Below are positions 18,209-31,176 of a stretch of DNA of 64,000 nt, piece after piece. Each line of letters starts with the position of its first letter. Position 1 is the stretch's first letter. Source of the DNA: Bradyrhizobium sp. CB1650 (lineage in GTDB: Bacteria; Pseudomonadota; Alphaproteobacteria; Rhizobiales; Xanthobacteraceae); contig NZ_CP121695.1 of the NCBI RefSeq assembly GCF_029761915.1, positions 4,803,501-4,867,500 on the forward strand, in the 5' to 3' direction. Under the pieces are notes generated by a model, which was given only the letters and a program-made list of their open reading frames with translations, was not told the DNA's origin and searched no databases. Both the position numbers and the translations under genes were made by a program.

Positions 18209-18298
18209 GGAAGGGTGGCCGAGTGGTTTAAGGCACCGGTCTTGAAAACCGGCGTGCCCGCAAGGGTACCGTGGGTTCGAATCCCACCCCTTCCGCCA
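18209..18298 (+). tRNA. tRNA-Ser (anticodon TGA)
   Basis: A complete 90-base class II tRNA with encoded CCA. The acceptor arm GGAAGGG pairs with CCCTTCC, the anticodon loop CTTGAAA carries TGA (18243-18245), a long variable arm follows, and the T arm contains GGGTTCGAATCCC. The last 14 bases (CACCCCTTCCGCCA) recur at 22817 and 26116, so the gene is an integration target that was restored to full length. Confidence 0.97.
18285..18298 (+). repeat. att core within tRNA-Ser 3' end
   Basis: CACCCCTTCCGCCA, the 3' end of tRNA-Ser. Identical copies lie at 22817-22830 and 26116-26129, as expected for attL/attR scars of tRNA-targeted integration. Confidence 0.75.
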
Positions 18299-18665
18299 GC
18301 ATATTGTTCTCCACTGCGGGCGAATTCTATGAAGCTTGTCGCAGTCACGCCTTGCGGAACCGCTTTGCGCGCAACCGGCACAGCGCAGACCGATGTGAAC
18401 TGAATGACGCCAGGAGATCGGCACTCGCCTGACTGCGCTCCAAAAGAATGTTCTTCTAAAATTCGCGCAAACTTGTTGGTGTCACTTCCGTCGCAAACGT
18501 TGTTGCAACTACAAGAAGTCAACGATACGGTAATCATCCTAATGGCGAATGAGTTGGGTCACCTCCCGCAGCGAAGGCGCAACTCCTTTCAATCCTCGCG
18601 CGGCTATCGTGCCTACGATTTAGTCGGGCTGGAATGAGCTCTGGAGCATAAGGGAACGTGTCCGA
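18299..18665. other. Gene-free stretch after tRNA-Ser
   Basis: Nothing supported here. The open frames lack ribosome-binding sites and family resemblance. The first gene of the accessory segment begins at 18666. Confidence 0.4.
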
Positions 18666-19118
18666 ATGATCCGGCTAAATCAAGCGTGGCGCTGGAAGCC
18701 GAGCATGCTCCTCGCTTCGGGCTTTTGCTTCGCGATTGGTTATCTCGTTTGCATCCCGGCATTCGCCTGTCTCAGCCCGAGCCTGGAACGAACCATTATA
18801 TTCAACCATGTCCCGACCGACGTCGACGCGCCGGTGATCGCAGAAGTCACGATCGTCGACATGACCCCCGACCTCCGCGATCTCGCGACCTTTACCGGGA
18901 CCATGGCCGTCATGAGCGCCCGCGTCGAGAACGTTATCAAGGGAAAAATTGGTGAGGGCCAGCTGAAAATAGTGACGCCGCTGTCGGATTGCAGCAACGG
19001 CTTCGGCGCGGGCGTGCGCGGTTTTGTCGCCGGCGAGCTTAGCAGCGACGCGAACGGGAATTCTGAATTGGTCGCAGTCTCTGAAAATGTGAGGAAGGCC
19101 AACGCGCGACCGCAATGA
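18666..19118 (+). CDS. Hypothetical exported protein
   Basis: A 150-residue protein with an N-terminal signal or anchor (MLLASGFCFAIGYLVCIPAF). The rest looks like a single extracytoplasmic beta-rich domain (PVIAEVTIVDMTPDLRDLAT, MSARVENVIKGKIGEGQLKI, then PLSDCSNGFGAGVRGFVAGE). The pattern of a modified small molecule or metal-exposed Cys is not clear enough to name a family. The start ATG has only a weak ribosome-binding site (AAGGGAACG). First gene of the segment beyond tRNA-Ser. Function unknown. Confidence 0.6.
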   Translation: MIRLNQAWRWKPSMLLASGFCFAIGYLVCIPAFACLSPSLERTIIFNHVPTDVDAPVIAEVTIVDMTPDLRDLATFTGTMAVMSARVENVIKGKIGEGQLKIVTPLSDCSNGFGAGVRGFVAGELSSDANGNSELVAVSENVRKANARPQ

Positions 19119-19287
19119 GGCCTGCGGCTCTGGGGGACTGAAAGATGAGCTGGGATACAGTTAAAGCTGCGATCAGGTTCTGGCCGCTTCGCGGGAGCGG
19201 GCCAGTCAAAGCCTGTTCGGTACTAGCTTGGTACACCAACGGTGCGGCGGTAAAACGAGATCAACGTCCGTTCGCTGGGAGGAAGAA

Positions 19288-19662
19288 TTGAAGAGGCGGA
19301 TTCTAATTTTTGGTCTGCTCGGCCCTACGCTTAGCTATCTGCTGTTCGTTTTGTTGAGCAGAGAGCACGCCGGGCTTCTCGTGCGTTCGGCTTGGCTCGT
19401 TGCACCCATCGTATTCGTGGTGGAAGGAGGGCCGCTTCTTATTTGCGGACTTTTGGACTTCGCAATGGAGAGGGTACACTGGTGGGAGCGCCTGGCAATT
19501 GCGCTATTGACAGGATTCGCTCTGACATTCGTTGTTATCTTCGCGTTTCTGCCCAACCTCGCGAAAGCAGGCCCGGCAATCTTGCAGCTCGGGCTCGTTG
19601 GTGCAATTCCCGCCGCCATCTGCTCTTTCTTGGCCCATTTAGCAGCACCAAGACCGGCATAA
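19288..19662 (+). CDS. Hypothetical four-span membrane protein (TTG start)
   Basis: A 124-residue integral membrane protein with about four hydrophobic segments (RILIFGLLGPTLSYLLFVLL, SAWLVAPIVFVVEGGPLLIC, AIALLTGFALTFVVIFAFLP, LGLVGAIPAAICSFLAHLA). The TTG at 19288 is chosen because GGGAGGAAG lies immediately upstream at ideal spacing; the frame is open 20 codons further but without a site. No catalytic motif. It is a single gene between exported and small hypothetical genes in the tRNA-Ser accessory segment. Function unknown. Confidence 0.6.
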   Translation: MKRRILIFGLLGPTLSYLLFVLLSREHAGLLVRSAWLVAPIVFVVEGGPLLICGLLDFAMERVHWWERLAIALLTGFALTFVVIFAFLPNLAKAGPAILQLGLVGAIPAAICSFLAHLAAPRPA

Positions 19663-19885
19663 ACGACGTCCCCACGTCGCTCACTGCCGCGCGCCCGCGA
19701 CTATCCTGGTAATATTGCGATTGGGGGCAAAATGACTAGACTGGTCGCGCTGTGTGCCGCTCGCGCGCCGGCGAGCCTGCTCAAAATCACTAGAGTTCAA
19801 TGAACGTTCACCGGCCGTTCATGAACCTTTGTCCGCTGCGGTGAGTTCTTATCGATGAGTCAGGTTCACGGATGGGGACCCATCA

Positions 19886-20071
19886 ATGAAGCGCCTCCGG
19901 TTCAAACCAAAGTCCTCGCTAAAGGTACGGCTCGCTATAGAAGCCCGGCAGTGGAGCGACGAAGCCGGGACCTTCCCACCCAGGCACAAACGAGGCAGTC
20001 TGCTTAGGAAGTCCCGACAGACCAAAGTTGCGTCCGACATAGTCGAGTGGCTGATATCACCAGGTAGGTGA
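19886..20071 (+). CDS. Small hypothetical protein (61 aa), rhizobial type
   Basis: A basic 61-residue protein (MKRLRFKPKSSLKVRLAIEA, then LLRKSRQTKVASDIVEWLIS ending PGR). The arrangement of a charged helix, a short Pro-containing linker, RKARQ-like positions and the ending WLxSPG matches a small protein repeated many times in Bradyrhizobium genomes, as I recall it. GGGGACCC precedes the ATG. Function unknown; the multiplicity of the family would fit a mobile or regulatory role, but that is inference. Confidence 0.5.
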   Translation: MKRLRFKPKSSLKVRLAIEARQWSDEAGTFPPRHKRGSLLRKSRQTKVASDIVEWLISPGR

Positions 20072-20246
20072 TCCTGCCGCTCGCGGCGGTGGCCGCAAAG
20101 AGTGGCTGGTCTCCGGATCGGGCCAGGCGAGAGCGTGTAGGCGCTTGCGGTTGGCCGATTAAATCGATAAAGCGGCCCGCTCGGCACGGTGTCTAATTCG
20201 GTCCGACCCCTCCCATCATCGATAGAGGCTGCAAGGCCGTGGGCGA

Positions 20247-20465
20247 TCAGCTCTCGATTTGCTTCACCGTCGAGATCGGCCATCGCCCCTCATGCCCCGC
20301 GATCGAGATGCGGAGCCCATGCTCGTCATCGAGGAAGACGCCATCGATTGTGCCAGCCTTGCCGTCAGTCAGGACGACCGCCTTGCCGACTAACTCCTTC
20401 TCGGCCTCCTGCAACTCGCGCAAGATGTTCATGGCTCGTCTGTCGCCTGTGCTCGAGGCGCTCAT
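20247..20465 (-). CDS. Small PRC-barrel-like hypothetical protein
   Basis: A 72-residue leftward protein. The core (ELVGKAVVLTDGKAGTIDGV, FLDDEHGLRISIAGHEGRWP, ending ISTVKQIES) has the length and spacing of a single small beta-barrel such as a PRC domain, with a Gly-Lys-x-Gly turn. ATG 20465 has GGAG eight bases upstream; ATG 20432 would give a shorter 61-residue form. It follows another small leftward gene, the two being about 35 bp apart, so they probably form a mini-operon. No export signal. Function unknown. Confidence 0.55.
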   Translation of the reverse strand: MSASSTGDRRAMNILRELQEAEKELVGKAVVLTDGKAGTIDGVFLDDEHGLRISIAGHEGRWPISTVKQIES

Positions 20466-20499
20466 GGTGCCAACTCCAAACGGGCCGCCGATCGGCGCG

Positions 20500-20742
20500 T
20501 CAAGCGCGGGCGATCTCAACAACCTCGCTGAGCTTATTTTCGGCGTCGTAGATCTTGACCTGAAGCCGAGGGGATCGGTTCTTCAGCTGTGTGCCAGCTT
20601 CCAGGGCGCTCGCTTTCGCCACGAAGGTCGCCTTGACATGACCGTCGACGATTAAGGCATAACCGGTCGTCAGGGGGGCAATCGACGCTTTGGTGGTACG
20701 GGCGGACGCTGCTGGCGCTGCCAGCCTGCGCTTCTCGCGCAT
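20500..20742 (-). CDS. Small hypothetical protein (80 aa)
   Basis: An 80-residue leftward protein with a basic N-terminus (MREKRRLAAPAASARTTKAS) and a compact alpha/beta core (GYALIVDGHVKATFVAKASA, then RLQVKIYDAENKLSEVVEIA). I recognise the GYALIVDG...K/RLQVKIYDA layout as a small protein common in Bradyrhizobium, without known function. The start is supported by GGAG seven bases upstream of the ATG at 20742. It lies upstream of the PRC-like gene in the same orientation. Confidence 0.6.
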   Translation of the reverse strand: MREKRRLAAPAASARTTKASIAPLTTGYALIVDGHVKATFVAKASALEAGTQLKNRSPRLQVKIYDAENKLSEVVEIARA

Positions 20743-20978
20743 GGGAAAACTCCGCTTGTCGGGGACTGCTGATCAACTTCCCGGGCTCCCCAAGGTTCCC
20801 GTCACTGGATGCGCGCCAACGCACAGACGGCGCGCACCCCTGGTCCTGGAATGCAAAACGATCCGCCCGAAGGCTGCCGGCAAGGCAAGCGCCGCCCAGT
20901 GTCGCAAAACGAACCGAGGGAAGATGGTGGAATCGATTAGGCTGCCGACACACTTCGCGCCCATACGAGGGAACGGCT

Positions 20979-21095
20979 GTGGAGACGTATACCCTTCTCG
21001 TCGACGCAATTGGGATCATTGCCTTCGCGGCGTTGACCTATGGACAGCGAACACGACGGCGCAGGCGCGCGCGAGGCCGAAGGCTGTACGGCTAA
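20979..21095 (+). CDS. Possible 38-residue membrane microprotein
   Basis: GTG start with GAGG about eight bases upstream. The product has one hydrophobic span (TYTLLVDAIGIIAFAALTYG) followed by a strongly basic tail (QRTRRRRRARGRRLYG), the topology of a small inner-membrane protein with a cytoplasmic Arg tail. Only topology and ribosome-binding site support it; no family recognised. Confidence 0.3.
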   Translation: METYTLLVDAIGIIAFAALTYGQRTRRRRRARGRRLYG

Positions 21096-21231
21096 GCCGG
21101 AGCCTTAGGCAAATCGGCGCGGCGAGGAGAGCAAGCCGCGCAATTCGGGGCATGCCACCGCCGCGCCACCAAATCGCCTGACGACTCAACGAGCAAGCTA
21201 CAGCGGGGGCGGTGCGCACGGGTGATGTATG

Positions 21232-21384
21232 ATGCGCAGTTGGTTTAATCGATGCTCAGTTGCAATCTTGAACGGACTGACGGTTGCGATGCTCATGCTG
21301 GTGCTCGGCGCGATCCTTGCTCGAAATGTCGGACCTGCCGAGAACGCTGGTCGAGCCACTCGGATTTTGGTGTCGCAGACCTGA
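21232..21384 (+). CDS. Possible 50-residue membrane protein
   Basis: Begins MRSWFNRCSVAILNGLTVAM and continues through one hydrophobic stretch (MLMLVLGAILA) into a polar tail. The composition is plausible for a signal-anchored small protein. There is no strong ribosome-binding site and no recognised family, so it is tentative. Confidence 0.3.
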   Translation: MRSWFNRCSVAILNGLTVAMLMLVLGAILARNVGPAENAGRATRILVSQT

Positions 21385-21519
21385 GAGGGGCGCTGCCGTA
21401 AGAAAGTGATCACCGGCTTTGCCCTGCCGATAGGCCGTCCCGCTGGCGCTCTGTCTGTCGCCGGCGGTGCAAAGGCCAAGTCGAAGGGGGTATTGAGAAC
21501 GTTGAATGTCGCGCGACAT

Positions 21520-21645
21520 GCTGACGGTGTCCTCCCGGATGACCAGTATCCGGTAGCCGTCGTGCTTTACTTCGTGAATCCAGCCCGGCCCTGAGGGGAC
21601 CTGCCTGCCGGCGGTGGCTAGGCAGAGCTCGTACGCAGTACACAT
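21520..21645 (-). pseudogene. Relic of an ATP-dependent DNA ligase (LigD-type ligase domain)
   Basis: About 42 residues only: the stretch GPGWIHEVKHDGYRILVIRE is the nucleotidyl-transfer motif I of ATP-dependent DNA ligases (K-x-D-G-x-R, with Lys as the AMP acceptor), preceded by the typical CLATAGRQVPS entry. The following domains are absent; downstream in frame the sequence no longer resembles a ligase. It cannot encode an active enzyme. Rhizobia carry several LigD/LigC copies for non-homologous end joining, so this is probably the leftover of an extra copy carried in the accessory segment. Confidence 0.65.
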
Positions 21646-21829
21646 CGGCGGGAGATAGGCACTCGCCGAGGATTTTACGAATCCAGGTGAGTTTCTGCCC
21701 GGAACAGTCGCCTAATGTGCTGAACCGGACAGAGCGGCTCAGTGAGCCTTGAGTAGGCTCGCCTCGCTTTGGTTCGAGTTCGGGACCAAAGCACCCAACT
21801 AGCGGCCCCGGACCACGCTCCCCCTTCTC

Positions 21830-21850
21830 AAAACGGCCGGGGCCGTTTTT
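21830..21850 (-). terminator. Bidirectional-looking terminator
   Basis: AAAACGGCC, GG, GGCCGTTTT then T. The T-run reads out on the plus strand and TTTT also on the minus strand. It lies 50 bp beyond the stop of the leftward gene at 21900-22334. Confidence 0.7.
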
Positions 21851-21899
21851 CCGGGCTATCGGGGGAAAAGCGGACGTCGCACACAATCTGCGGGCGGTC

Positions 21900-22334
21900 T
21901 TACTGCGCTAGAAATCTGAACGCGACAATCAGTGCCACCATGCTCGCGAAAATCAGAAGTGCCGGGAGGGATTTTCGGGGCATTGGCCTCGTCGAATGGC
22001 GCGCAGCCGATTGACCGGGTTGCGGTCTAGGCGGGCTCTGGGACCGCACGACTTTGCCCTTTGACGTTGGCGTCCGAGCCTTTGGTTCCGGCGCTGCGCC
22101 TACGCCTCCCATCTCGCCGTAATACGCGCTGTAGACCTCGCGAAGGGCGAGGGCCGTGGACTCGGCCTCGCTCATTGTCTCGAGGCGGCTTTGATAGTTA
22201 GTCAGAAAGCTTCGGGCATTGGACGGCAGGTCATCGAAACCACCGAGCTTGGCCATCATGAGCCAAGTGGCAAAATCCGCCTCAGCCTTCGTGCGCGCTT
22301 TCTTGGCGATACTGGCGTTGGAGCTGGAGGACAT
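21900..22334 (-). CDS. Hypothetical tail-anchored protein
   Basis: A 144-residue leftward protein. A soluble helical N-terminal part (SIAKKARTKAEADFATWLMM, SNARSFLTNYQSRLETMSEA, AESTALALREVYSAYYGEM) leads to a Pro/Ser/Arg-rich linker and one C-terminal membrane span at the very end (LPALLIFASMVALIVAFRFL). This is the layout of a tail-anchored protein with its bulk in the cytoplasm. The frame extends upstream to 22463; ATG 22334 (MSSSSNAS) is the more natural start but lacks a strong ribosome-binding site. Family not recognised. A terminator follows at 21830-21850. Confidence 0.55.
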   Translation of the reverse strand: MSSSSNASIAKKARTKAEADFATWLMMAKLGGFDDLPSNARSFLTNYQSRLETMSEAESTALALREVYSAYYGEMGGVGAAPEPKARTPTSKGKVVRSQSPPRPQPGQSAARHSTRPMPRKSLPALLIFASMVALIVAFRFLAQ

Positions 22335-23087
22335 GGTGGTCCGATTGGTTTGAACGCGGCCCGCGAAGCTGTTCATCGACACCATCCGCGCGGCGGGAAA
22401 GGCAATTGACAATCCAGTCACAGTAATGACGCCGCGGGAGAATTCAAACGCGAACCTTAACAACTTAGTCGGCTCGTGGCCCAGGGTGAAGCGGGCTGAG
22501 CAGGCTAGCTAGGTCACCTCTGCTGATGCCCCAACGGCGCAGTAGCCAACATTGACTCGTGGTCCAGTTCGACTCCAAATAGGAAGATGGTTCGGCCGCC
22601 TCGGTTGAGGCTCCTCGGGGCGGATGCTGGTCAAGGCAGACCAAGGGAAGCGATGGGCGAGGGGTAGCAAGGAGGCGAGTTGGGCGCCGACGAGAGCGGG
22701 GGCGTTGCGCGGTCCAAAACTACGGTCGACGTCCTGGCGAATATACCGTGGTTGAGACCGTAGATTGCTCGCAGCTTGGATAAAAAACTCGAACGATTCC
22801 GGGACAGTTGACAGGACACCCCTTCCGCCAAAACAGCGTCCAGCATCGTGACGGAACCAGCCAGGCTTCCTGCTTCTTGTGAGAAAATTGAAATCATCCT
22901 TGCGGAATTATGGCGACGTGACGTTCGATTGCGTACCGCTTAACGAGGTTCGGCCGCGAGAATGGCGAGGTGAGAAGGCCGAGACGCGGCTGTCTTGCCC
23001 ATGCCGCCTGCTACCGTTCGTAGTCACTCCGCTGAGCGCCATTCGTTGAAACAACTATCGCAGGGCCGATCGCAAATGACGATCACC
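22335..23087. other. Gene-poor interval containing an att copy
   Basis: No coding region supported. The 88-codon minus-strand frame at 22631-22897 runs across the att copy and resembles nothing I know. The interval separates the tail-anchored gene from the large membrane gene and contains the tRNA-Ser-derived repeat at 22814-22832. Confidence 0.5.
22814..22832 (+). repeat. att copy 2 of tRNA-Ser 3' end
   Basis: GGACACCCCTTCCGCCAAA, identical over 19 bases to the copy at 26113-26131 and over 14 bases (CACCCCTTCCGCCA) to the tRNA-Ser 3' end. Confidence 0.8.
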
Positions 23088-25304
23088 TTACGATCGATAG
23101 CTGAAAGTCGGGTGGCGCTCCGAGGGGCGGACTTCGGTGCTCGTATTTGCCGGCGGAGCCAGCGCAAAGAAGCCGAAGACGGGCACCACCATCTCAAGTT
23201 CTCGACGGTAGACTTCGTAGTCGGACGCGCCGGGCCGAACGAAACCGAGTTGAGGCATGTGATCGATCACACGTCTGAGAACGATAGGAGCGCTCGCTGG
23301 CGTAAACTGTGCACCACCAGGATTTGACAGCGTCGTGATCAGACCGCGTGCCGGCTCGTCACTCTTTTCGGGGCGAGACACCATGATCAGACGTATGGCT
23401 CCTTTTTCGAGTGTAACGAAGTTCACGAATGGCCTCCCGTCTGGGATGTAGACTCGGCCCTTCTGCGTGTGCCCAGCATCGACACGTTCTCGTTCCTCGA
23501 ACATGAGGCAGGACTCGGTCTCGTCCCAATGGACGACCATGAGGTAAGCACTGATAATTTCGGGGTTTGAGAAGGCCGGCCTGAAGCATACATAATTCCC
23601 TTCGAATGCCTCTACACTTGCGCGAGCGTAGCAGCCGAGATCATAGGCAGCGTCGGATCTGGATGGCACTGGAGGTTCGATATCGTCAGCAATCGGCGGC
23701 GCGTCATGCAAGGGACTATCCTTGTGCGGGTCGTTGGCTGCCCGCTCGGCGGTAACCTTGCGTATGCGCTCGGACTCATTGAAGACCGCAAGTACCATGC
23801 CACCGACGATAAAGCCGGTCAAACCGGTGCTTAGCGCCACTAGATAAACCGCGTCCTGCGGATGCGCATAGAACTGAGCCAGCACTTGCTGGCCGACCAT
23901 ATGCGCGACCAGCCACCCCGCGCAGGTCAATGCGCCACCGTTCCCGAGCGCCCCGAGCGCGGCCACGTGGTACCAGCTCCAGCGCGACGATCCAAGGTAG
24001 GAACAGATAAGCCCGAGGGAGACCGTACAGACGAAAGGCGTAATAACTCCGTATATCCGTTCGATGAGCTGCTTGAGAACGTCCTGATACCCTTCGCCTT
24101 GCATCAAGGCGGACACGAGCGGAATACCGATACGGAGGGCAATTGATAGTCCCACAACGATGAGACCTGCAATTACCAACTCTGCAGTAGGCGGATATAC
24201 TGACGAGTCGCCCTCTTTTCGTTCAATGAAACGTTGCGCCACCACGATGGCGCCCGAGACTGCGAACCCGATTGAAATCCCAAACGTGATTGCAATCGTT
24301 AGGACTTTTCCTACGTCGAGCGGGAGCGTCCCTGGCATAAACACCATCATGCCAATGCTCAAGGCTATGACGAGAAAGATCGTTGTCGCCCATTGATCCA
24401 GTCCAAACGTCGGGCCCGGACGGTAGGCGAAGCCCATCTTCGCAAGGCGCTGCAACCGACCGCTGTGAGTCCTTTCGCAAAAGAGGACATAGCGAGAAAC
24501 TAGGCTGCAAGTAAGGTTAGTGACCTCCGCAATGTTGCGGTTCAGCGCTTCTTTCAATTCGGGGTTAGGTAGCGAAGACGTGAAATAGGCAAGACCGGCG
24601 TGCATCAATTCTTCATAGCGGGCATCTGCACGAGTAGCCACCGAGTCGCTCATTTGCATGATCGTCGCGTAGGCCGATCGACCATATCCATTTTCAGCGA
24701 ATTCAAGTGCCGTAGCGTTGTGCCTGGGCCCAACGAACAGATTGTATAGGCCAATGGCCCTTGTGAACCGGTCGGGAAGCGTACCATCCCTGCTGAAACT
24801 TAGCGCCTGCCGACCGATATTTTCCGAAATGATCTTGATGACTTTACCTCGTATGTTCCCTTGTGGAGCAAAACCGGTGGTTTGAGCGAGTTCAATTGCG
24901 AGCCGGTCGGCTTCACGCGGAATAGCGGCCAACTTGACGCAAAATGCCCGCGCGGCCCTATCGACCCGTGCCACCTCCCGGAATTGCGAAGCGACAACGA
25001 TGATGAGGACGGCTACAATCGGAGCATATTGAGCGAGTTGCGCTTGCGCCTCGGGGTTAACCTGTATCAACCTGCTGACTATGAAGTCGAACCCGATGCT
25101 ACCCTGCACAATGCCGATCATCACCACGAGCCAAAGCGGTATCATCAAGGCGTAGTAAAATATCACGCCCCAGAAGAACAACGCGAACGTAGTACCGGAC
25201 CGATTGGTCGGTGGAGAGTTGAAGCGAGCCCAGGCGACTACAAAGAGTGCTGAGACCGCAATAATCCATTCGCTCTTCGTAACTATTTCTCGAATGATGT
25301 CCAT
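23088..25304 (-). CDS. Large polytopic membrane protein with C-terminal soluble domain, unknown family
   Basis: A 738-residue leftward protein, the largest of the accessory segment. Two N-terminal spans (WIIAVSALFVVAWARF; FALFFWGVIFYYALMIPLWL) and a third near residue 92 (IVAVLIIVVASQF) precede a long soluble helical part of about 200 residues. A second bundle of about six spans follows (FLVIALSIGMMVFMPGTLPL through GLTGFIVGGMVLAVFN). The last 190 residues are soluble and beta-rich (FEGNYVCFRPAFSNPEIISA, VYIPDGRPFVNFVTLEKGAI, LITTLSNPGGAQFTPASAPI). Family unknown to me. GC is clearly below the neighbours. ATG 25304 has GGAG upstream. It is the only intact large gene between two att copies. 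Confidence 0.8.
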   Translation of the reverse strand: MDIIREIVTKSEWIIAVSALFVVAWARFNSPPTNRSGTTFALFFWGVIFYYALMIPLWLVVMIGIVQGSIGFDFIVSRLIQVNPEAQAQLAQYAPIVAVLIIVVASQFREVARVDRAARAFCVKLAAIPREADRLAIELAQTTGFAPQGNIRGKVIKIISENIGRQALSFSRDGTLPDRFTRAIGLYNLFVGPRHNATALEFAENGYGRSAYATIMQMSDSVATRADARYEELMHAGLAYFTSSLPNPELKEALNRNIAEVTNLTCSLVSRYVLFCERTHSGRLQRLAKMGFAYRPGPTFGLDQWATTIFLVIALSIGMMVFMPGTLPLDVGKVLTIAITFGISIGFAVSGAIVVAQRFIERKEGDSSVYPPTAELVIAGLIVVGLSIALRIGIPLVSALMQGEGYQDVLKQLIERIYGVITPFVCTVSLGLICSYLGSSRWSWYHVAALGALGNGGALTCAGWLVAHMVGQQVLAQFYAHPQDAVYLVALSTGLTGFIVGGMVLAVFNESERIRKVTAERAANDPHKDSPLHDAPPIADDIEPPVPSRSDAAYDLGCYARASVEAFEGNYVCFRPAFSNPEIISAYLMVVHWDETESCLMFEERERVDAGHTQKGRVYIPDGRPFVNFVTLEKGAIRLIMVSRPEKSDEPARGLITTLSNPGGAQFTPASAPIVLRRVIDHMPQLGFVRPGASDYEVYRRELEMVVPVFGFFALAPPANTSTEVRPSERHPTFSYRS

Positions 25305-25635
25305 GTTCCGCGCTCCCACATAGCAGGCGACGCTTGCATGATTTCATGATTTTGCTCTGCCCTCGCCGAGGCAGGGCGCTAATTTAATGAGGTGGCATCA
25401 TGGAGGCGGGTATCTCGCGTCTGCACACGTGCCCCGAGTAGCATAGGAAAGTACACCGAGCGATCTAGCTGTAATGTGAACTGACACACACTTGGCCAGA
25501 AATTCCATCGTGGGTACGAGTGCAGCTGAGAAAATAGATGACCGGCGCGGGGTCCTCGTGCTTTCCGAAGCCATCATCCCTGGGATTCGGGGCTTGCCTA
25601 CAAAGGTGTAATCAATTGCATCATCACCTTGGAGC
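25305..25635. promoter_or_regulatory. Upstream region of the large membrane gene
   Basis: Low-GC interval, no gene supported. It should carry the leftward promoter of the 738-aa gene; an AT-rich patch (GCTAATTTAATGAGG, 25378-25392) is the most likely place. The long minus-strand frame over 25398-25829 is a shadow of the pseudogene on the other strand. Confidence 0.4.
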
Positions 25636-25972
25636 GGCCCCGCCTGGGAGGACGACGAAAACGCGGCGCTCGAGCACATGATCGCAAAGATCGCGATCGA
25701 GATCGTCACCGCGGCCGAGCTCAAGAATTGGGAAGACTTTTTGCGGCGCGAGCAGGCGCGAGTTGACCGCCTCCTTGAGGAAGCCGCGGTGTTGCGGCGC
25801 GACCGACATCCGCGCCTACGTCCATGCATGCAGTCAACAGGCGGCCAGCGGAGCGGGGATGGCCACGCCGACGGGGGTCGAACGTTGGGCGCGGTGGGCC
25901 TTTGCCCAAGGCGCTCGCATCGATCCGGTCAGGAACGGCCGGTTTCTCAAGGAACCTGACCGTCGCTGTAGC
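25636..25972 (+). pseudogene. Frameshifted small hypothetical gene
   Basis: Two adjacent plus-strand frames read as one protein if joined near 25798. Frame one gives PAWEDDENAALEHMIAKIAI and EDFLRREQARVDRLLEEAAV; frame two gives ATDIRAYVHACSQQA, then GVERWARWAFAQGARIDPVR. I recall small rhizobial proteins in which RREQARIDRLLEEAAALR leads directly into ADIRAYV and ends ERW..WA...ADRIDPV. The upstream end meets a stop (TAA at 25606) before any start codon in frame, so the N-terminus may also be lost. The break lies just inside the outer att copy. Confidence 0.55.
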
Positions 25973-26112
25973 CTAGCCTGACCGCAGCTTTTGCCTAGTG
26001 GTTTCGGAGGACGACCAACTGAGAGCCAGCGACAGCGACGTGGGGCAAGATGTGGGGCGCGGCGAACCCGGGTTGAAATACTAGTGTGAAAACAGTTGCG
26101 CGATCGCCCGGC

Positions 26113-26131
26113 GGACACCCCTTCCGCCAAA
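26113..26131 (+). repeat. att copy 3 of tRNA-Ser 3' end (outer boundary)
   Basis: GGACACCCCTTCCGCCAAA, 19 of 19 bases as at 22814-22832, with 14 bases identical to the tRNA-Ser 3' end. It marks the right edge of the island scar. Confidence 0.8.
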
Positions 26132-26162
26132 CTATCAGAAAAATTTAAATGCTTCGGGGTTT

Positions 26163-26432
26163 GTGCCATTCGGCGCACAATTGAACGTACAATGCGCGTT
26201 CGACGTCTGCGTCGCGGAGCTGCGCGCTACCGGCATGCGGGATCTGATCGTCTTCTGCCAAGACTGCAGATGCAGCCACAACGGCAAGCTCACGGCCGAC
26301 TACGTCGATCGGTGGCCGGATGACGTTCGGCTTTCCGAACTCGAGCCGTGGTTCGTCTGCAAGGCGTGCGGCAAGCGGGGCGCGATCTTCCGCGGCTGCA
26401 GGGAAGAGACCATGATGGCCGTTGGTCGATAG
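26163..26432 (+). CDS. Small zinc-ribbon-like hypothetical protein
   Basis: An 89-residue protein with four cysteines arranged as CQDCRCSHNG and, 35 residues on, FVCKACGKRGA, a spacing suited to a zinc ribbon. The central motif DRWPDDVRLSELEPWFVC closely follows a small protein I know to be widespread in Bradyrhizobium and related genera. The GTG at 26163 is uncertain: the conserved part begins near RATGMRDLIVFC, so a shorter form is possible. No export signal. It begins about 30 bp after the outer att copy. Function unknown; zinc binding is an inference from Cys spacing. Confidence 0.6.
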   Translation: MPFGAQLNVQCAFDVCVAELRATGMRDLIVFCQDCRCSHNGKLTADYVDRWPDDVRLSELEPWFVCKACGKRGAIFRGCREETMMAVGR

Positions 26433-26602
26433 GACGGCCCCAGCCGTTGGGCGATGAGAGGAGTTGGGAGGCTGGGGTCGCTGGGGTGAATTGGGCCGCC
26501 CTGCTTCGTGCCAACAAGTCGCCGTAACCAATCGAAGGGCTTGAACCGCAAAGCTGCTTCTCGCGACAGAACTAAGGGGCAAGTGGTCGAGTGGGTCGTG
26601 CC

Positions 26603-26866
26603 ATGCGTGTCCAGATACTCACGTCACATTTCCTTACCTGCATCGTGACGCTCGCCGCTCTGATTGGGGCGCAGCAAGCATTTTCCCTTCAGGCAGATGC
26701 CGGCGCGAGGGCCGCGATATTTGTTGATCAGGTAGCCAATCGGGCAGGCAAGGGCGACAGGCTACCAACTGCGCGAGCATTGCCTAACGATGCCCGTTGC
26801 AAGCCGCCGATTGATGTCGTCGGACGCTGTTTCGCCGAAGCGAGATTGAACCAGAGCGTAGCCTGA
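26603..26866 (+). CDS. Small exported hypothetical protein (87 aa)
   Basis: Starts with a signal peptide (MRVQILTSHFLTCIVTLAAL, cleaved after about residue 28). The mature part includes KGDRLPTARALPNDARCKPP and ends DVVGRCFAEARLNQSVA. Two cysteines remain in the mature part and could form a disulfide. This layout (signal, KGDRLP motif, Cys-containing tail) is one I associate with small periplasmic proteins of Bradyrhizobium. ATG 26603 places the signal peptide at the N-terminus; the in-frame GTG at 26591 lacks support. Confidence 0.6.
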   Translation: MRVQILTSHFLTCIVTLAALIGAQQAFSLQADAGARAAIFVDQVANRAGKGDRLPTARALPNDARCKPPIDVVGRCFAEARLNQSVA

Positions 26867-26944
26867 GGCCGAGAAGCATTCCCTGCCCGCGGAAGCGTTG
26901 CTTGGCGCCTGCTCACAGCGGAGACCCTCCGCCTAATACCTATG

Positions 26945-27088
26945 TCAGAGCCAGGGGTGTCCCAACTCCCCAGCCATCAGCGCCCGCGGGGAGGGGATCA
27001 CGCCCTCCTTGCGCAGGCGATCACCCACGCAATCGCGGATGAGATTGGACCTGGTCGTGAAGCTGGCGGCGGCCGAAGCGACCGTCGC
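26945..27088 (-). pseudogene. C-terminal remnant of a ribbon-helix-helix-like protein
   Basis: 47 codons without a start: a stop sits just upstream in frame. The residue run SFTTRSNLIRDCVGDRLRKE looks like the second helix of an RHH-type DNA-binding protein and is followed by SPRALMAGELGHPWL. The N-terminal strand and first helix are missing. Tentative. Confidence 0.25.
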
Positions 27089-27118
27089 TCACTGCCGCCA
27101 AGTAGCCCTTGCAAGAAT

Positions 27119-27295
27119 CTACGCGGCCACGTCGAATGTTGCGATTAGCGTCCGCATATCTGTTGCAAGATCCCGATAGCGCTTCGCCAGCCGCTGGTAT
27201 AGCTCGCGCTCATCTCCACCCGATCGACGAGCGATCAATTCGCATTCCTCCGCGAGGCTTTCAAAACGCTCCAGCTTGGCTAGGAAAGCAGTCAT
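27119..27295 (-). CDS. Small hypothetical protein (58 aa)
   Basis: A leftward 58-residue charged helical protein: MTAFLAKLERFESLAEECEL, then DERELYQRLAKRYRDLATDM, ending IATFDVAA. Its two predicted amphipathic helices and the sequence RLAKRYRDLATDMRTLIA match a small protein family I have seen repeatedly in Bradyrhizobium. No membrane span. Function unknown. It overlaps only non-coding frames on the opposite strand. Confidence 0.6.
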   Translation of the reverse strand: MTAFLAKLERFESLAEECELIARRSGGDERELYQRLAKRYRDLATDMRTLIATFDVAA

Positions 27296-27498
27296 TGGGG
27301 GCCCCGAACGCGTTACTAAAGGGACCGGGAGCCTAATCGCCAGATTAGGTCAAAACTAACATTGTTATTGGCCATAACAGCTAAGGCAGGTGAACGAGCA
27401 AAGAGCCCCAGCCGCGGGGGCGGCCAGGGCCGCGTCGGCGCGCAGGAACGTTTAGCCCTGCCCGGAGTCGAATGGGCGACAGATCCGCGCGTCGACCG

Positions 27499-27657
27499 AT
27501 GGACAGAACGATTGCCTATGCGATCTCGGCATTCATCGTCATCTTTGGCGTCGGCATTCTCGTTGCCGGGCTCAGCTCCCGTTCGCCCGCGTTATGGATT
27601 TGCGTGGCCATCATCCCCATTGCGATCGGGCTCTTGAGCGCTTTTGGCGACTACTAG
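27499..27657 (+). CDS. Small two-span membrane protein (52 aa)
   Basis: A 52-residue protein made almost entirely of two hydrophobic helices (AYAISAFIVIFGVGILVAGL; WICVAIIPIAIGLLSAFGD) joined by SSRSPAL. ATG 27499 begins MDRTIAY. It lies 66 bp before the DUF2939 gene on the same strand and could be co-transcribed. Function unknown. Confidence 0.6.
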   Translation: MDRTIAYAISAFIVIFGVGILVAGLSSRSPALWICVAIIPIAIGLLSAFGDY

Positions 27658-27723
27658 CGATGTCGTCGCGGGCTTTGGAAATCCGGGCTTGGAACAAAGC
27701 TCCGCGGCCTCGATTGCCGTTCC

Positions 27724-28302
27724 ATGAAATGGATCGTAGGCACCCTTGCGGTCGTCCTGACCATTCTCGTGATCTATGCCGGATCGGCTTTAGTCTCCGT
27801 ATTGGGTCTCGTTTCGGCCGTTCGGAACGGTGACGTTTCTCAGATCATGACGCGGACCGACTTGCCGCGTGTCCGCCATTCCATCGTTGATCAGCTTATG
27901 ACCGCCTATCTCGAACGGCTCGGGCAAAAACGCCCATTGCGACCGATCGAGCGGATGGCGATCACTTCGCTTGGCACAACGATCGCCGACGATTTTGCAA
28001 CCAAGCTCATCACGCCAGAGAATCTGTCAGTGCTGCTCGGCAGCGGGATCGTCCGCAATGCTGCAGAGAATATCAGTTTTGGGACGATGTCATCGTTAGC
28101 CGATCTGGACGCTTCAAACGTCGTCGTCCTGCTCGGACGGATCAATCCGGTCAAGCCAGTCGAATTTACGCTTGGGTTCGGCCGAGGCGAAAACGCGGGC
28201 AGTATCAGCATGCATTTCGCGGGGGCGGGCTGGAAGCTATCGGGCGTCGGGCTGCCGCGGCGGATCGTAGCCACCATGGTCGATCGGCTGCCGACGCATT
28301 GA
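27724..28302 (+). CDS. DUF2939 family protein
   Basis: A 192-residue protein with an N-terminal signal or anchor (VGTLAVVLTILVIYAGSALV) and an extracytoplasmic domain matching DUF2939: an early conserved block (LVSAVRNGDVSQIMTRTDLP, RVRHSIVDQLMTAYLERLG) and a late beta-strand block (RINPVKPVEFTLGFGRG, SMHFAGAGWKLSGVGLP). Family length fits. The family has no known biochemical role; members are anchored proteins facing the periplasm. No clear ribosome-binding site precedes ATG 27724. A small membrane gene lies upstream and another downstream. Confidence 0.78.
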   Translation: MKWIVGTLAVVLTILVIYAGSALVSVLGLVSAVRNGDVSQIMTRTDLPRVRHSIVDQLMTAYLERLGQKRPLRPIERMAITSLGTTIADDFATKLITPENLSVLLGSGIVRNAAENISFGTMSSLADLDASNVVVLLGRINPVKPVEFTLGFGRGENAGSISMHFAGAGWKLSGVGLPRRIVATMVDRLPTH

Positions 28303-28377
28303 TTCACATCGTTAAAGGGAATCTACTCCCGCCTCGGGCAGGCTTGCGCGAGACGCTCCTTTTGGTGGGAGGCTGCA

Positions 28378-28566
28378 ATGCTGGCTTTGGAATTGCCGCA
28401 CTGGTTGATCATTGCGGGCAGCGGGTTGGTAGTCACTGGGCTCATTGGCCTGGGGCTTAACCGAAACAAGCAAGTTGACGGCGACCCCGTCGCGCTCCCA
28501 GGCGACCCGGATTCATGGAGATCCAGGGAGGCAGATGAGTCGGCCGCCGCGGCCGTCCCGGATTGA
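28378..28566 (+). CDS. Small single-span membrane protein (62 aa)
   Basis: One hydrophobic helix (HWLIIAGSGLVVTGLIGLGL) followed by a polar, acidic tail (NRNKQVDGDPVALPGDPDSW). GGGAGG sits at ideal spacing before the ATG, which supports translation. It lies about 75 bp after the DUF2939 gene. Function unknown. Confidence 0.6.
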   Translation: MLALELPHWLIIAGSGLVVTGLIGLGLNRNKQVDGDPVALPGDPDSWRSREADESAAAAVPD

Positions 28567-28716
28567 CGCAGGCTGCAGAGGTGCGCTGCGGAAGGACACG
28601 CCTGAACTCACGCGGCACTTGAGCACTTGCGAACGGCTTCCGATTGGCGGCTGTCCCAGGTATCTTCTCGGGCGCGACAGACGCGCCATGATGCGGTCAG
28701 CAGCGGACATCCTCGT

Positions 28717-29547
28717 GTGAACAATACTGCACCGACCAGTGTCGCCGAAGGCCAGCGGAAGCGGAAATGGCCCTTCTGGCTGGCATCTCTAGTTCTGGCC
28801 TATCTGGCATTGGCCTATCTTTTCTTGCCCGCCCTCTGGAGTCATCACGAACGCGAGCCGGGGCTCGCGTCGCTGCCGATGATCACCAGGACGTCAGCCG
28901 ACATCCCGGGTGATCCACTGAACGTCGGGCTTGTTGGCGACAAGGAAGACATCGTCCGAGCCATGACTGCGGCAGGTTGGTATGCGGCTGATCCCGTTAC
29001 ACTGCGTTCGAGCGTCGAAATCGTCGGCAGCGTGATACTAGATCGCCCCTATCGCGATGCGCCTGTCAGTCCTCTATACTACCAAGGGAAGAAACAGCAG
29101 CTTGCGTTCGAGAAGCCCGACGGGCGCAGCGCAGATCGGCGCAATCACGTTCGGTTCTGGAAGGTGCTCGAGAGCGGCGACGACACGCGGCCGGTCTGGC
29201 TCGGGTCGGCGACGTTCGACCGGGGCGTTGGACTGAGCCACGATACGGGCCAAGTGACCCATCACATTGCTTCGGACATTGATGCCGAGCGCAATCTTCT
29301 GATGACAGATCTACGCAAGGCGCGCGTTGTCAGCAGCTTCTTTCAGATCTCGGGCATCGGCCCGACGCTATTTGGCAGGAACGGTGGTGGCGATCCTTAC
29401 TACACGGACGGCGAAATCCATCTTGCTGTCTTGATGCCCGGAGCTGCGATTGGACCTGTCGACCCGGCAACGCTTCCTCCGCCCGCGCTCATTGCGCTGA
29501 AGGACACTGTGTGGCGATCGATTTCCGACCAGGTCGGGGCACGATGA
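28717..29547 (+). CDS. LssY C-terminal-domain-like membrane-anchored protein
   Basis: About 276 residues. One membrane span (WLASLVLAYLALAYLFLPAL) near residue 25 anchors a large soluble domain. That domain has the LssY C-terminal pattern: GDPLNVGLVGDKEDIVRAM, TAAGWYAADPVTLRSSVEIV, YRDAPVSPLYYQGKKQQLAF, PVWLGSATFDRGVGLSH. LssY_C domains occur beside or fused to PAP2 phosphatases in type I secretion or lipid-related loci; here the domain stands alone. GTG 28717 is preferred because it puts the span close to the N-terminus, but the Shine-Dalgarno is weak and TTG 28627 remains possible. Confidence 0.75.
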   Translation: MNNTAPTSVAEGQRKRKWPFWLASLVLAYLALAYLFLPALWSHHEREPGLASLPMITRTSADIPGDPLNVGLVGDKEDIVRAMTAAGWYAADPVTLRSSVEIVGSVILDRPYRDAPVSPLYYQGKKQQLAFEKPDGRSADRRNHVRFWKVLESGDDTRPVWLGSATFDRGVGLSHDTGQVTHHIASDIDAERNLLMTDLRKARVVSSFFQISGIGPTLFGRNGGGDPYYTDGEIHLAVLMPGAAIGPVDPATLPPPALIALKDTVWRSISDQVGAR

Positions 29548-29600
29548 CTTCATTGGCAATCTTCTTTCGCGCGCGGCCCGATCTCGATCTTGCCGGCGCC

Positions 29601-30284
29601 TCAGGCGGCGAAGTCTGTCGAGAGGCCGGAGGCTTCGCGCTGAGTTGAGTAGCCGGCAAGACGTTGCGCGACGGCTTTCTGACCTTCCGCCATCATGGCC
29701 TGGAACGCGGCGTCCAATTGCGCACGCGTATAATTCGTCGAGCGGGTTTGACGTGGTGTCCATTGGGACTGCGTGATCGCAGTAGGAGCCTTTTCAACCG
29801 TGCCGCCGATCGCGTTTGCGATGTATTCCGCTCGCCAATGCGCCAAATCGGGGCCGTTCAAACCCGGAGGGTCTTGCAGGCTTCCGACCTTTCCTGCGGC
29901 ATCGTTGGTCATCGCCGAAGAACCACCGTTATAGAGGGTCGCAACGACTTTGCCGTTGACCTTGACGGTCGCATAGATGTTTTGCGGGGCATTGTCCGGC
30001 ACGTCCAGCGCAGAGCTCGATTGAGCGGCTTGCATCCGCAACCAATTCGTCGCCATCAAATCGCGAAGCTCGGGATTGTCACTGACCGAGATGATCTTCA
30101 GTCCCGAAGTGTCGATTCTCTTGAGAGTCGATACTGGAATTCCCGGCGTTGCAATTCCTGCCGACGCACTTCCGTCCACACTGGCCGAAGACAACGTCTC
30201 GGCAGAGGAGAACGGGGTCGTGCTCGATGGGTAGATTGGTGCGAGACGCAAAAGGCTCGCGTTGTTTGCCATGGCCGCAATCAT
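29601..30284 (-). CDS. Hypothetical protein, Ser/Ala-rich N-terminus
   Basis: A 227-residue leftward protein. The N-terminal 60 residues are low-complexity Ser/Thr/Ala (YPSSTTPFSSAETLSSASVD). The middle includes NIYATVKVNGKVVATLYNGG, and the C-terminal half is helical (NGPDLAHWRAEYIANAIGGT; AQLDAAFQAMMAEGQKAVAQ). No signal peptide or membrane span. GGGGG precedes ATG 30284. The Ser/Thr-rich beginning recalls rhizobial proteins exported by unconventional routes, but I see no diagnostic signal. It is convergent with the LssY-like gene, stops about 50 bp apart. Function unknown. Confidence 0.6.
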   Translation of the reverse strand: MIAAMANNASLLRLAPIYPSSTTPFSSAETLSSASVDGSASAGIATPGIPVSTLKRIDTSGLKIISVSDNPELRDLMATNWLRMQAAQSSSALDVPDNAPQNIYATVKVNGKVVATLYNGGSSAMTNDAAGKVGSLQDPPGLNGPDLAHWRAEYIANAIGGTVEKAPTAITQSQWTPRQTRSTNYTRAQLDAAFQAMMAEGQKAVAQRLAGYSTQREASGLSTDFAA

Positions 30285-30724
30285 GGGTCCCCCTCATCAG
30301 TCATTTGGGCCAGATACAAGCACTGTGCCAACGCCTAAGCGATTGATCAGGCTTGCGGTCATTGTTCTCGAAGTGGCTGAGCGTCGGAAAATCTTGCCGG
30401 CAGCGGCAAAACTTTCCACGCGAGCGAATGCGGAACGACGGCTAGCTCGACGGATCCTGCGAGGATGGCGTGATGCCGCTGTTTTGCCCGACGTGTCAAA
30501 CGACTTGACGCTCGAAAATCATGCCGGCGCAGGACGGCGGCTACTGTGCATGGGGTTGTTTTCGACATTTTTTCGTACGGCTGCTCATGTCGCGTGAGGC
30601 GACCAGGCGGAGTCGTGCTCCTCTCGTCACTAAGCACCTGATATTTTGATGACTTTGGTCCGCCGCGCAGGTTAGCCTGGGTGGGGTCTTCGGAACTTCG
30701 CAGCCGCTTCGGCGTTGTCTCGGC
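30285..30724. other. Intergenic region between divergent small genes
   Basis: No gene supported. It separates the leftward 227-aa gene from a rightward 63-aa gene and should hold both promoters. Its frames are long only because stops are rare in GC-rich sequence. Confidence 0.4.
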
Positions 30725-30916
30725 ATGACCGAGAACGTGTCCTTCCGACGCAAACCCCTTACGCCCGAACAGCGTCAGGCGCGCGATGCGGCCCGGCGTG
30801 TAGAGGCGGAAAAAGCCATGCGCGACTATGAGGCCGCGCAAAAGGCATTTCATGCCAATCGCGAACGACTGAAGGCCGAACGGCTCGCTCGCGAGGCGGC
30901 TGCGGCCAAGGGGTGA
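30725..30916 (+). CDS. Small charged helical protein (63 aa)
   Basis: A 63-residue, very hydrophilic protein: MTENVSFRRKPLTPEQRQAR, then EAEKAMRDYEAAQKAFHANR, ending AREAAAAKG. Practically all of it is predicted as one long helix, possibly a coiled coil. I recognise the type as a conserved small protein in Bradyrhizobiaceae. No strong ribosome-binding site. Function unknown. Confidence 0.55.
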   Translation: MTENVSFRRKPLTPEQRQARDAARRVEAEKAMRDYEAAQKAFHANRERLKAERLAREAAAAKG

Positions 30917-31176
30917 GCATCAAGGGTTGATCATCGAGGGCTGATCATCCGGTCCGGCCGCAGAGGCCTCGTCCCAGCACTACTGTTCCTGAAAGGCAGC
31001 CGGCGAACAGCGCCGGCTGATCCACGCCGCGCGCTCCAGGCAAACTCGCGCGCCCGGACGGCGGAGGCTTGACTGTGTTCCGCTTCCGGGAGGAAGATTC
31101 GATCGATCCCGAACTGACGAGAACCACAGAGACGATCGCTTCCAGTCCCAATCGGCGCAACGCAATGGAGCTGACG

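What the first reader, a model, noticed from the sequence alone, without database searches (positions are those of the whole stretch)
18209..26131. Three copies of the tRNA-Ser 3' end: scar of a tandem integrative island with no integrase
CACCCCTTCCGCCA, the last 14 bases of tRNA-Ser(TGA), recurs in the same orientation at 22817-22830 and 26116-26129. The two outer copies share 19 bases (GGACACCCCTTCCGCCAAA). This is the signature of site-specific integration in a tRNA gene. It divides the segment into two units, 4.5 kb and 3.3 kb, neither with an integrase. The right unit is bounded by the best-matching repeats, so it may be a small non-autonomous cassette mobilised in trans, or a deletion product. 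That the repeats are att sites is inferred from their tRNA match and placement.
Basis: partly seen in the sequence, partly recalled or inferred. Interest (0 to 1): 0.75.

Follow-up and report, generated by a model that had tools for sequence, protein, structure and literature searches.

The report
Decayed tandem islands behind tRNA-Ser
Behind one serine tRNA gene of this Bradyrhizobium-like genome lie the worn remains of at least two, probably three, DNA islands that inserted one after another at the same spot and lost their integrase genes; the spot is a busy insertion site across the genus and the arrangement is of a known kind.

Summary
In detail: CACCCCTTCCGCCA occurs exactly three times in the 9.43-Mb genome, all in one orientation, at the places named. 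The copies are attachment (att) sites. In 265 genus genomes GACACCCCTTCCGCCA has 84 sites in 72 genomes; 55 lie 0.45-68 kb downstream of tRNA-Ser(UGA) on the same contig, all 55 co-oriented. Many such islands carry P4-type integrases, and one species pair shows a precise 15-kb, two-unit presence/absence at the core. The 14-bp site is published for B. japonicum USDA6.

The interpretation needs changes. Unit 1 keeps both ends of one island class (type A) but lost its integrase, 18 bp inside the left end. Copy 3 is followed by what looks like the left end of another class, so a probable third unit runs from 26130 to about 30464; its right att and a chromosomal DUF2786 gene are gone. The 19-base match of copies 2 and 3 is what two element-side junctions would show; it does not mark the right unit as a cassette. 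Relatives show graded integrase loss, favouring decay over trans-mobilisation.

The parts
18209..18298 (+). tRNA-Ser(TGA), the integration target; its last 14 bases (18285-18298) are core copy 1
18299..18316 (+). remnant of a type A island left end: 17 of 18 bases match four of the compared loci, then similarity stops
   Evidence: best of 127,946 window positions with the type A left-end profile, though it scores below 12 of 13 true members
18299..22816 (+). unit 1, a type A island without integrase, GC 0.595
   Evidence: both ends; no integrase; GC
20116..20874 (+). DNA 89.5% identical to a stretch 1.1 kb behind tRNA-Ser in G240
21256..21645 (-). ORF with a DNA-ligase-D-like fragment of about 35 residues, far below the family cut-off; probably a gene remnant
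21900..22463 (-). 187-aa protein gene of unknown function; the DNA around it (21855-22570) is 90% and 87% identical to parts of two tRNA-Ser islands (L177, L056); a dispersed family with many other locations
22784..22817 (+). type A right arm ending in GTTGACAGGAC
   Evidence: best of 127,938 window positions with the type A right-end profile, the GAC fixed by the search left out
22817..22830 (+). core copy 2, junction of unit 1 and unit 2
22831..26115 (+). unit 2, class not assignable, GC 0.569
   Evidence: neither end fits a profile; GC
23088..25319 (-). 743-aa protein gene without Pfam, NCBIfam or PADLOC hit; relatives of 69-91% identity and nearly full length in 12 other genomes, at other loci
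26116..26129 (+). core copy 3, junction of unit 2 and unit 3
26130..26155 (+). sequence like the left end of type C (integrase-right) islands
   Evidence: rank 1 of 127,944 with a profile of 4 integrase-defined ends, rank 3 with 9 ends partly chosen by eye, rank 34 with all 9 integrase-right islands
26130..30464 (+). probable unit 3, older, right att lost, GC 0.599
   Evidence: left end above; no fourth core; backbone resumes at 30465; GC
26163..26432 (+). 89-aa protein gene; part of its DNA (26302-26393) has matches of 73-83% identity in six other loci behind tRNA-Ser, among them L034 at +449
27724..28302 (+). DUF2939 protein gene, also a hit to the PADLOC candidate model PDC-S55; DNA 27622-28318 is 88% identical to DNA 7.2 kb behind tRNA-Ser in G095
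28627..29547 (+). LssY_C-domain protein gene
30465..31100 (+). chromosomal backbone resumes; the DUF2786/DUF7168 gene that precedes it in relatives is missing

Best explanation
An array of at least two, probably three, decayed integrative islands at the 3' end of tRNA-Ser(UGA). Each was inserted by a P4-type tyrosine integrase recombining the 14-bp tRNA 3' end (attB) with the same core in the element (attP); this rebuilds the tRNA on the left and leaves a core copy, preceded by the element's own right arm, on the right. Since the tRNA end stays a target, later islands can land between the tRNA and earlier ones. Deletions then removed the integrases. Unit 1 is a type A island cut 18 bp inside its left end; unit 2 is a fragment of unknown class; unit 3 begins like a type C island and lost its right att together with a chromosomal DUF2786 gene. 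Shown: att nature of the core, integrases that go with it in sister islands, precise occupancy changes in relatives, ends of unit 1. Inferred: order of events, the deletions, and unit 3 as a separate island.
For: Three co-oriented copies and no others in the genome. GACACCCCTTCCGCCA at 84 sites in 72 of 265 genomes, reversed-pattern control 1 match; 55 of 84 downstream of the tRNA on the same contig within 68 kb, 55 of 55 co-oriented. P4-type integrases, whole or in part, next to the tRNA or at the right end of sister islands. Of 80 loci (79 relatives and the window), 4 have the tRNA followed by a DUF2786 gene after 48-52 bp and 8 have the same gene 35-51 bp after a distal core. G091 against G262: 4,814 bp at 96.3% from the core onward, displaced by two units of 14,983 bp in all. 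Unit 1's two ends each rank first in the window with type A profiles. Copy 3's right flank ranks first with an integrase-defined type C profile. Graded integrase loss in other small units; G157 and G134 share one right end (370 bp, 94.6%) with units of 0.45 and 3.8 kb.
Against: Unit 2's ends fit no class. Copy 3's right flank ranks only 34th with the profile of all nine integrase-right islands. Unit 1's left end scores below 12 of 13 true members, since only 18 bp are left. Neither window distal flank is among the 14 of 39 distal flanks that have a tRNA-proximal counterpart starting within 30 bp in the fetched loci. No trace of an integrase gene in any of the three units. No strain of the same species could be compared. 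29 of the 84 sites are not plainly downstream.
Confidence: 0.9

Rival explanations
1. Unit 2, or units 1 and 2, are small non-autonomous cassettes bounded by matched att sites and moved in trans by the integrase of a resident or visiting island.
For: Both ends of unit 1 are kept; core-bounded units of 0.45-6.2 kb occur in other genomes; the genome has an intact related integrase elsewhere.
Against: That integrase is only 39% identical to type A and sits in an island at tRNA-Ser(GGA) with another core. Five of 17 small units of other genomes hold an integrase or a truncated piece of one, a decay series, and the unit-to-unit matches found cover parts only, at most 458 bp; unit 2 has no match of 150 bp or more in the loci compared. 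The better match of copies 2 and 3 is expected of element-side junctions.
Confidence: 0.06
2. One island with internal core copies, produced by partial duplication or rearrangement inside a single element rather than by several integrations.
For: The three segments share low GC.
Against: The junctions are of different classes: type A right arm at copy 2, type C-like left end after copy 3. Tandem islands of different classes occur in relatives, for example G148 and G262. No further long repeats join the segments.
Confidence: 0.03
3. Chance repeats or a common regulatory motif.
For: The core is only 14 bp.
Against: Shuffles, genome-wide count, placement and orientation in the genus.
Confidence: 0.01

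Closest known systems
BJ6TGI09, island at trnS-TGA of Bradyrhizobium japonicum USDA6T (PMC3927601, section 13 with Table 5 read)
   Same: Same tRNA gene and the same 14-bp duplication; its coordinates 5,251,688-5,269,566 agree with the core sites found in G122, whose contig has USDA6T's length.
   Different: A single 17.9-kb island with an integrase; here two or three units without one.
Multiple islands at trnK-CTT, trnQ-TTG and trnI-CAT of USDA6T (PMC3927601)
   Same: Several displaced tRNA fragments behind one tRNA gene; the authors infer independent integrations. 5 of the 15 listed islands have no integrase in Table 5.
   Different: Other tRNA genes, duplications of 39-49 bp; the end classes and decay were not in what I read.
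Tandem arrays in the Islander database (PMC4383910, passages read)
   Same: Islands in series behind one tRNA, each with its own tRNA fragment.
   Different: Islander asks for an integrase in each member, so this array would be missed; it lists 125 tandems of two or more and 4 of three or more.
CIME, cis-mobilisable element (recalled, from no call)
   Same: att-bounded, integrase lost.
   Different: Mobilisation not tested here.
SGI1 tandem arrays in Salmonella (PMC2297512, abstract and section list read)
   Same: Arrays formed by repeated site-specific integration at one att site.
   Different: Copies of one intact element at thdF or a second site, not decayed units of different classes at a tRNA.

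Membership tests
tRNA-borne integrative genomic island | Intact tRNA gene at one end | tested here: met
tRNA-borne integrative genomic island | Displaced 3' fragment of the tRNA at the other end, same orientation | tested here: met
   copies 2 and 3 for units 1 and 2; no right fragment for unit 3
tRNA-borne integrative genomic island | Integrase gene | tested here: not met
   hence filed as decayed remnants, not as functional islands
tRNA-borne integrative genomic island | Precise presence/absence at the core | tested here: inconclusive
   Shown for relatives at the same tRNA; not testable for this species, since one genome per species is held
Type A tRNA-Ser island (class defined here) | Type A left and right end sequences | tested here: met
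   unit 1 only
Type C tRNA-Ser island (class defined here) | Type C left end, right-end integrase and right arm | tested here: inconclusive
   unit 3 has a left-end likeness only; no right end or integrase
Islander tandem array | Each member has its own tRNA fragment and integrase | tested here: not met
   no integrase
CIME (recalled) | Bounded by att sites, no recombination genes | tested here: met
   units 1 and 2
CIME (recalled) | Can be mobilised by a related element | not testable with these tools
   needs an excision assay

The most novel reading that the evidence does not exclude
The tRNA-Ser(UGA) array is not only a graveyard but a reusable att ladder: integrase-less units with matched ends, such as unit 1, stay competent for excision, and any incoming island of the same class can mobilise or reshuffle them, so that the tRNA holds a genus-wide store of small cargo segments without a resident recombinase.
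Probability: 0.08. Interest if true: 0.55.

Novelty: new member of a known kind. Interest (0 to 1): 0.3.

Why it matters
It is a well-resolved case of how islands pile up and erode at one tRNA. At least three integrase classes share one 14-bp target, and relatives supply empty, single, tandem and decayed states, so stages of loss can be read off sequences. It also shows that island finders that demand an integrase would miss such arrays, and that a repeat as short as 14 bp can be trusted once placement and orientation are checked across a genus.

Tried and rejected
Considered and set aside: chance repeats; a cassette reading for unit 2; an integrase acting in trans from the same genome, whose best match is 39% identical to type A and sits in an 8.3-kb island at tRNA-Ser(GGA) with core CACTCTCTCCGCCA.

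Led nowhere: own-genome integrases as queries found one ORF in the islands (L173); Pfam, NCBIfam and PADLOC gave no hit for most unit ORFs; the 743-aa protein has no PDB match better than E = 0.1; no tRNA gene lies in the 14 stretches scanned around its relatives, though one of them (L189) has an integrase-like match 6.5 kb away. Unit 2's ends fit no end profile.

Exceptions in the placement count (84 sites): 55 downstream, 2 upstream, 6 far, 16 on other contigs, 5 in genomes without the exact tRNA pattern. Both upstream cases were read: in G228 the supposed tRNA end is itself a distal copy followed by a flank like the empty-site flank; in G240 a type A-like right end is joined to a type C-like left end, 91 kb away from the tRNA. 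Of the 6 far ones, 4 are in G161 (two read, both with type A-like right arms), G101 may lie across the contig origin (not verified), and G105 was not followed; nor were the 16 and the 5.

Against a too simple view of the small units: parts of them are shared. L144 and L148 share 424 bp at 92%, and the 439-bp unit of G157 is matched over 370 bp at 94.6% in G134, where it is the right end of a 3.8-kb unit whose core has one mismatch. I read this as the same island eroded to different lengths.

Full report
Observation. The 19-base repeat at copies 2 and 3 is exact. The host is Bradyrhizobium-like; this is an inference from two same-genus genomes, G157 (9,105,828 bases) and G122 (9,207,384), whose contig lengths equal those that PMC3927601 gives for USDA110 and USDA6T.

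The site across the genus. The tRNA-Ser gene with 59 upstream bases was searched in 146 genomes; 145 had a match, in part perhaps to other serine tRNAs. I fetched 40 stretches of mostly 20 kb from those and 40 from genomes with the GAC-type core; 79 of the 80 contain the tRNA. The downstream chromosome (genes resembling yqhA, rlpA, dacC, tmk, holB and metG, named by eye) resumes near window 30.5-31 kb, while the distance from the tRNA to it ranges from about 1.8 kb to more than the fetched 19 kb. The pattern GACACCCCTTCCGCCA, which leaves out the tRNA's own CCCACCCC form, has 84 sites in 72 of 265 genomes, with one match of the reversed control. Of the 84, 55 lie downstream of the tRNA on the same contig within 68 kb and all 55 share its orientation; two of the 55 are the window's own. 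The other 29 are listed under Tried and rejected.

Integrases and classes. tblastn with two island integrases finds relatives, whole or in part, in many of the fetched loci. Types A and B lie just right of the tRNA and point away from it; type C lies at the right end and points back. One example of each was scanned: all three have Arm-DNA-bind_3 and Phage_int_M, and types A and C also Phage_integrase. Type A islands begin much like AGTATATTGTTCTCCACTG and end with GTTGACAGGAC or GTTGACCGGAC, with small variants, before the core. Some type C islands look prophage-like, by eye from ORFs; this was not tested.

Empty and occupied sites. Counting the window and 79 relatives, in 4 of 80 loci the tRNA is followed after 48-52 bp by a gene (DUF2786 and DUF7168 domains in the one scanned); in 8 of 80 the same gene follows a distal core after 35-51 bp; in 7 it lies elsewhere in the stretch; in 61, the window included, it is not in the stretch. 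The best pair is G091 and G262: from the core onward 4,814 bp are 96.3% identical, but in G262 this DNA follows the third core copy, behind units of 12.3 and 2.7 kb. In all, 14 of 39 distal flanks have a tRNA-proximal counterpart in another or the same locus starting within 30 bp; the window's two do not.

The window. Right after the tRNA, 17 of 18 bases match four of the compared loci, then similarity stops. With the type A left-end profile this position is the best of 127,946 in the window, and copy 2's left flank is the best of 127,938 with the type A right-end profile, the search-fixed GAC left out. The left score, 16.1, is below 12 of 13 true members scored with themselves left out; the right score, 23.4, is below 8 of 9. 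Unit 1 thus has both ends of one class and no integrase. To the right of copy 3, a profile of four integrase-defined type C left ends ranks that position first of 127,944; a nine-member profile partly chosen by eye ranks it third, and the profile of all nine integrase-right islands 34th. Unit 2's ends fit no profile. The chromosome resumes at 30465. The DUF2786 gene that precedes this point in relatives is not in the window and was not found in the whole genome (which has no positive control of its own). I read this as a third, oldest unit whose right end was deleted together with the gene.

Shared cargo. Window 20116-20874 is 89.5% identical to DNA 1.1 kb behind tRNA-Ser in G240. Window 21855-22570 is 90% identical to part of a G239 island, and 21882-22546 is 87% identical to part of a G087 island, but the 187-aa gene there has relatives at many other places. 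Window 27622-28318 is 88% identical to DNA 7.2 kb behind tRNA-Ser in G095. The 743-aa gene of unit 2 has relatives of 69-91% identity and nearly full length in 12 other genomes; in the stretches fetched the DNA likeness stays within 23016-25510 and no tRNA gene is near.

Decay or cassette. Of 17 small units from other genomes compared with the window's three, five hold an integrase or a piece of one: L153 nearly whole, L152 about 240 residues, L150 about 140, L144 about 110 and 30 in two frames, L054 about 85. Matches between units cover parts only. G157 and G134 share one right end, with units of 0.45 and 3.8 kb. This graded series fits erosion in place.

A parallel in the same genome. At tRNA-Ser(GGA), 596750-596839, an 8.3-kb island with an intact P4-type integrase at its right end is bounded by CACTCTCTCCGCCA, its right copy again preceded by CGGA.

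Known or new. PMC3927601 (passages and section 13 read) lists BJ6TGI09 at trnS-TGA of USDA6T with a 14-bp duplication, and multiple islands at trnK, trnQ and trnI. The site and the phenomenon are thus in print. I did not meet this array or a genus-wide comparison of the site in the listings of the six paper searches answered. Of other papers I saw the abstract and section list of PMC2297512 and passages of PMC11476347, PMC9897764 and PMC4383910.

Noticed in passing
L071, L072, L073 (G008, G079, G133); similar match pairs for G112, G033, G092 and G122 in the listed rows: Elements also enter the same tRNA gene from its 5' side: about 40 bp of the upstream edge and 5' half of the tRNA are duplicated 12-14 kb upstream of the whole tRNA in the three loci read. 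A tyrosine integrase of another kind (Phage_integrase with Phage_int_SAM_3; only that of L073 was scanned) ends 161 bp before the tRNA's end point. Islander lists 159 islands with a 5' fragment among 3919.
   Followed up: partly
G000:C1:596750-605101 (L205): The window's genome has an island of about 8.3 kb with an intact P4-type integrase at tRNA-Ser(GGA), core CACTCTCTCCGCCA, with CGGA before its right copy.
   Followed up: partly
L201 and other sites of G161: G161 has six GACACCCCTTCCGCCA sites, four of them far from its tRNA-Ser and one on another contig; the two read are type A-like right arms, one followed by a type A-like left end, which suggests arrays moved by rearrangement.
   Followed up: partly
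window 23088-25319: 743-aa protein without family hit; its last 190 residues or so have relatives in most of the genus (242 of 265 genomes have some match).
   Followed up: partly
window 27724-28302: DUF2939 gene that also matches the PADLOC candidate model PDC-S55.
   Followed up: no
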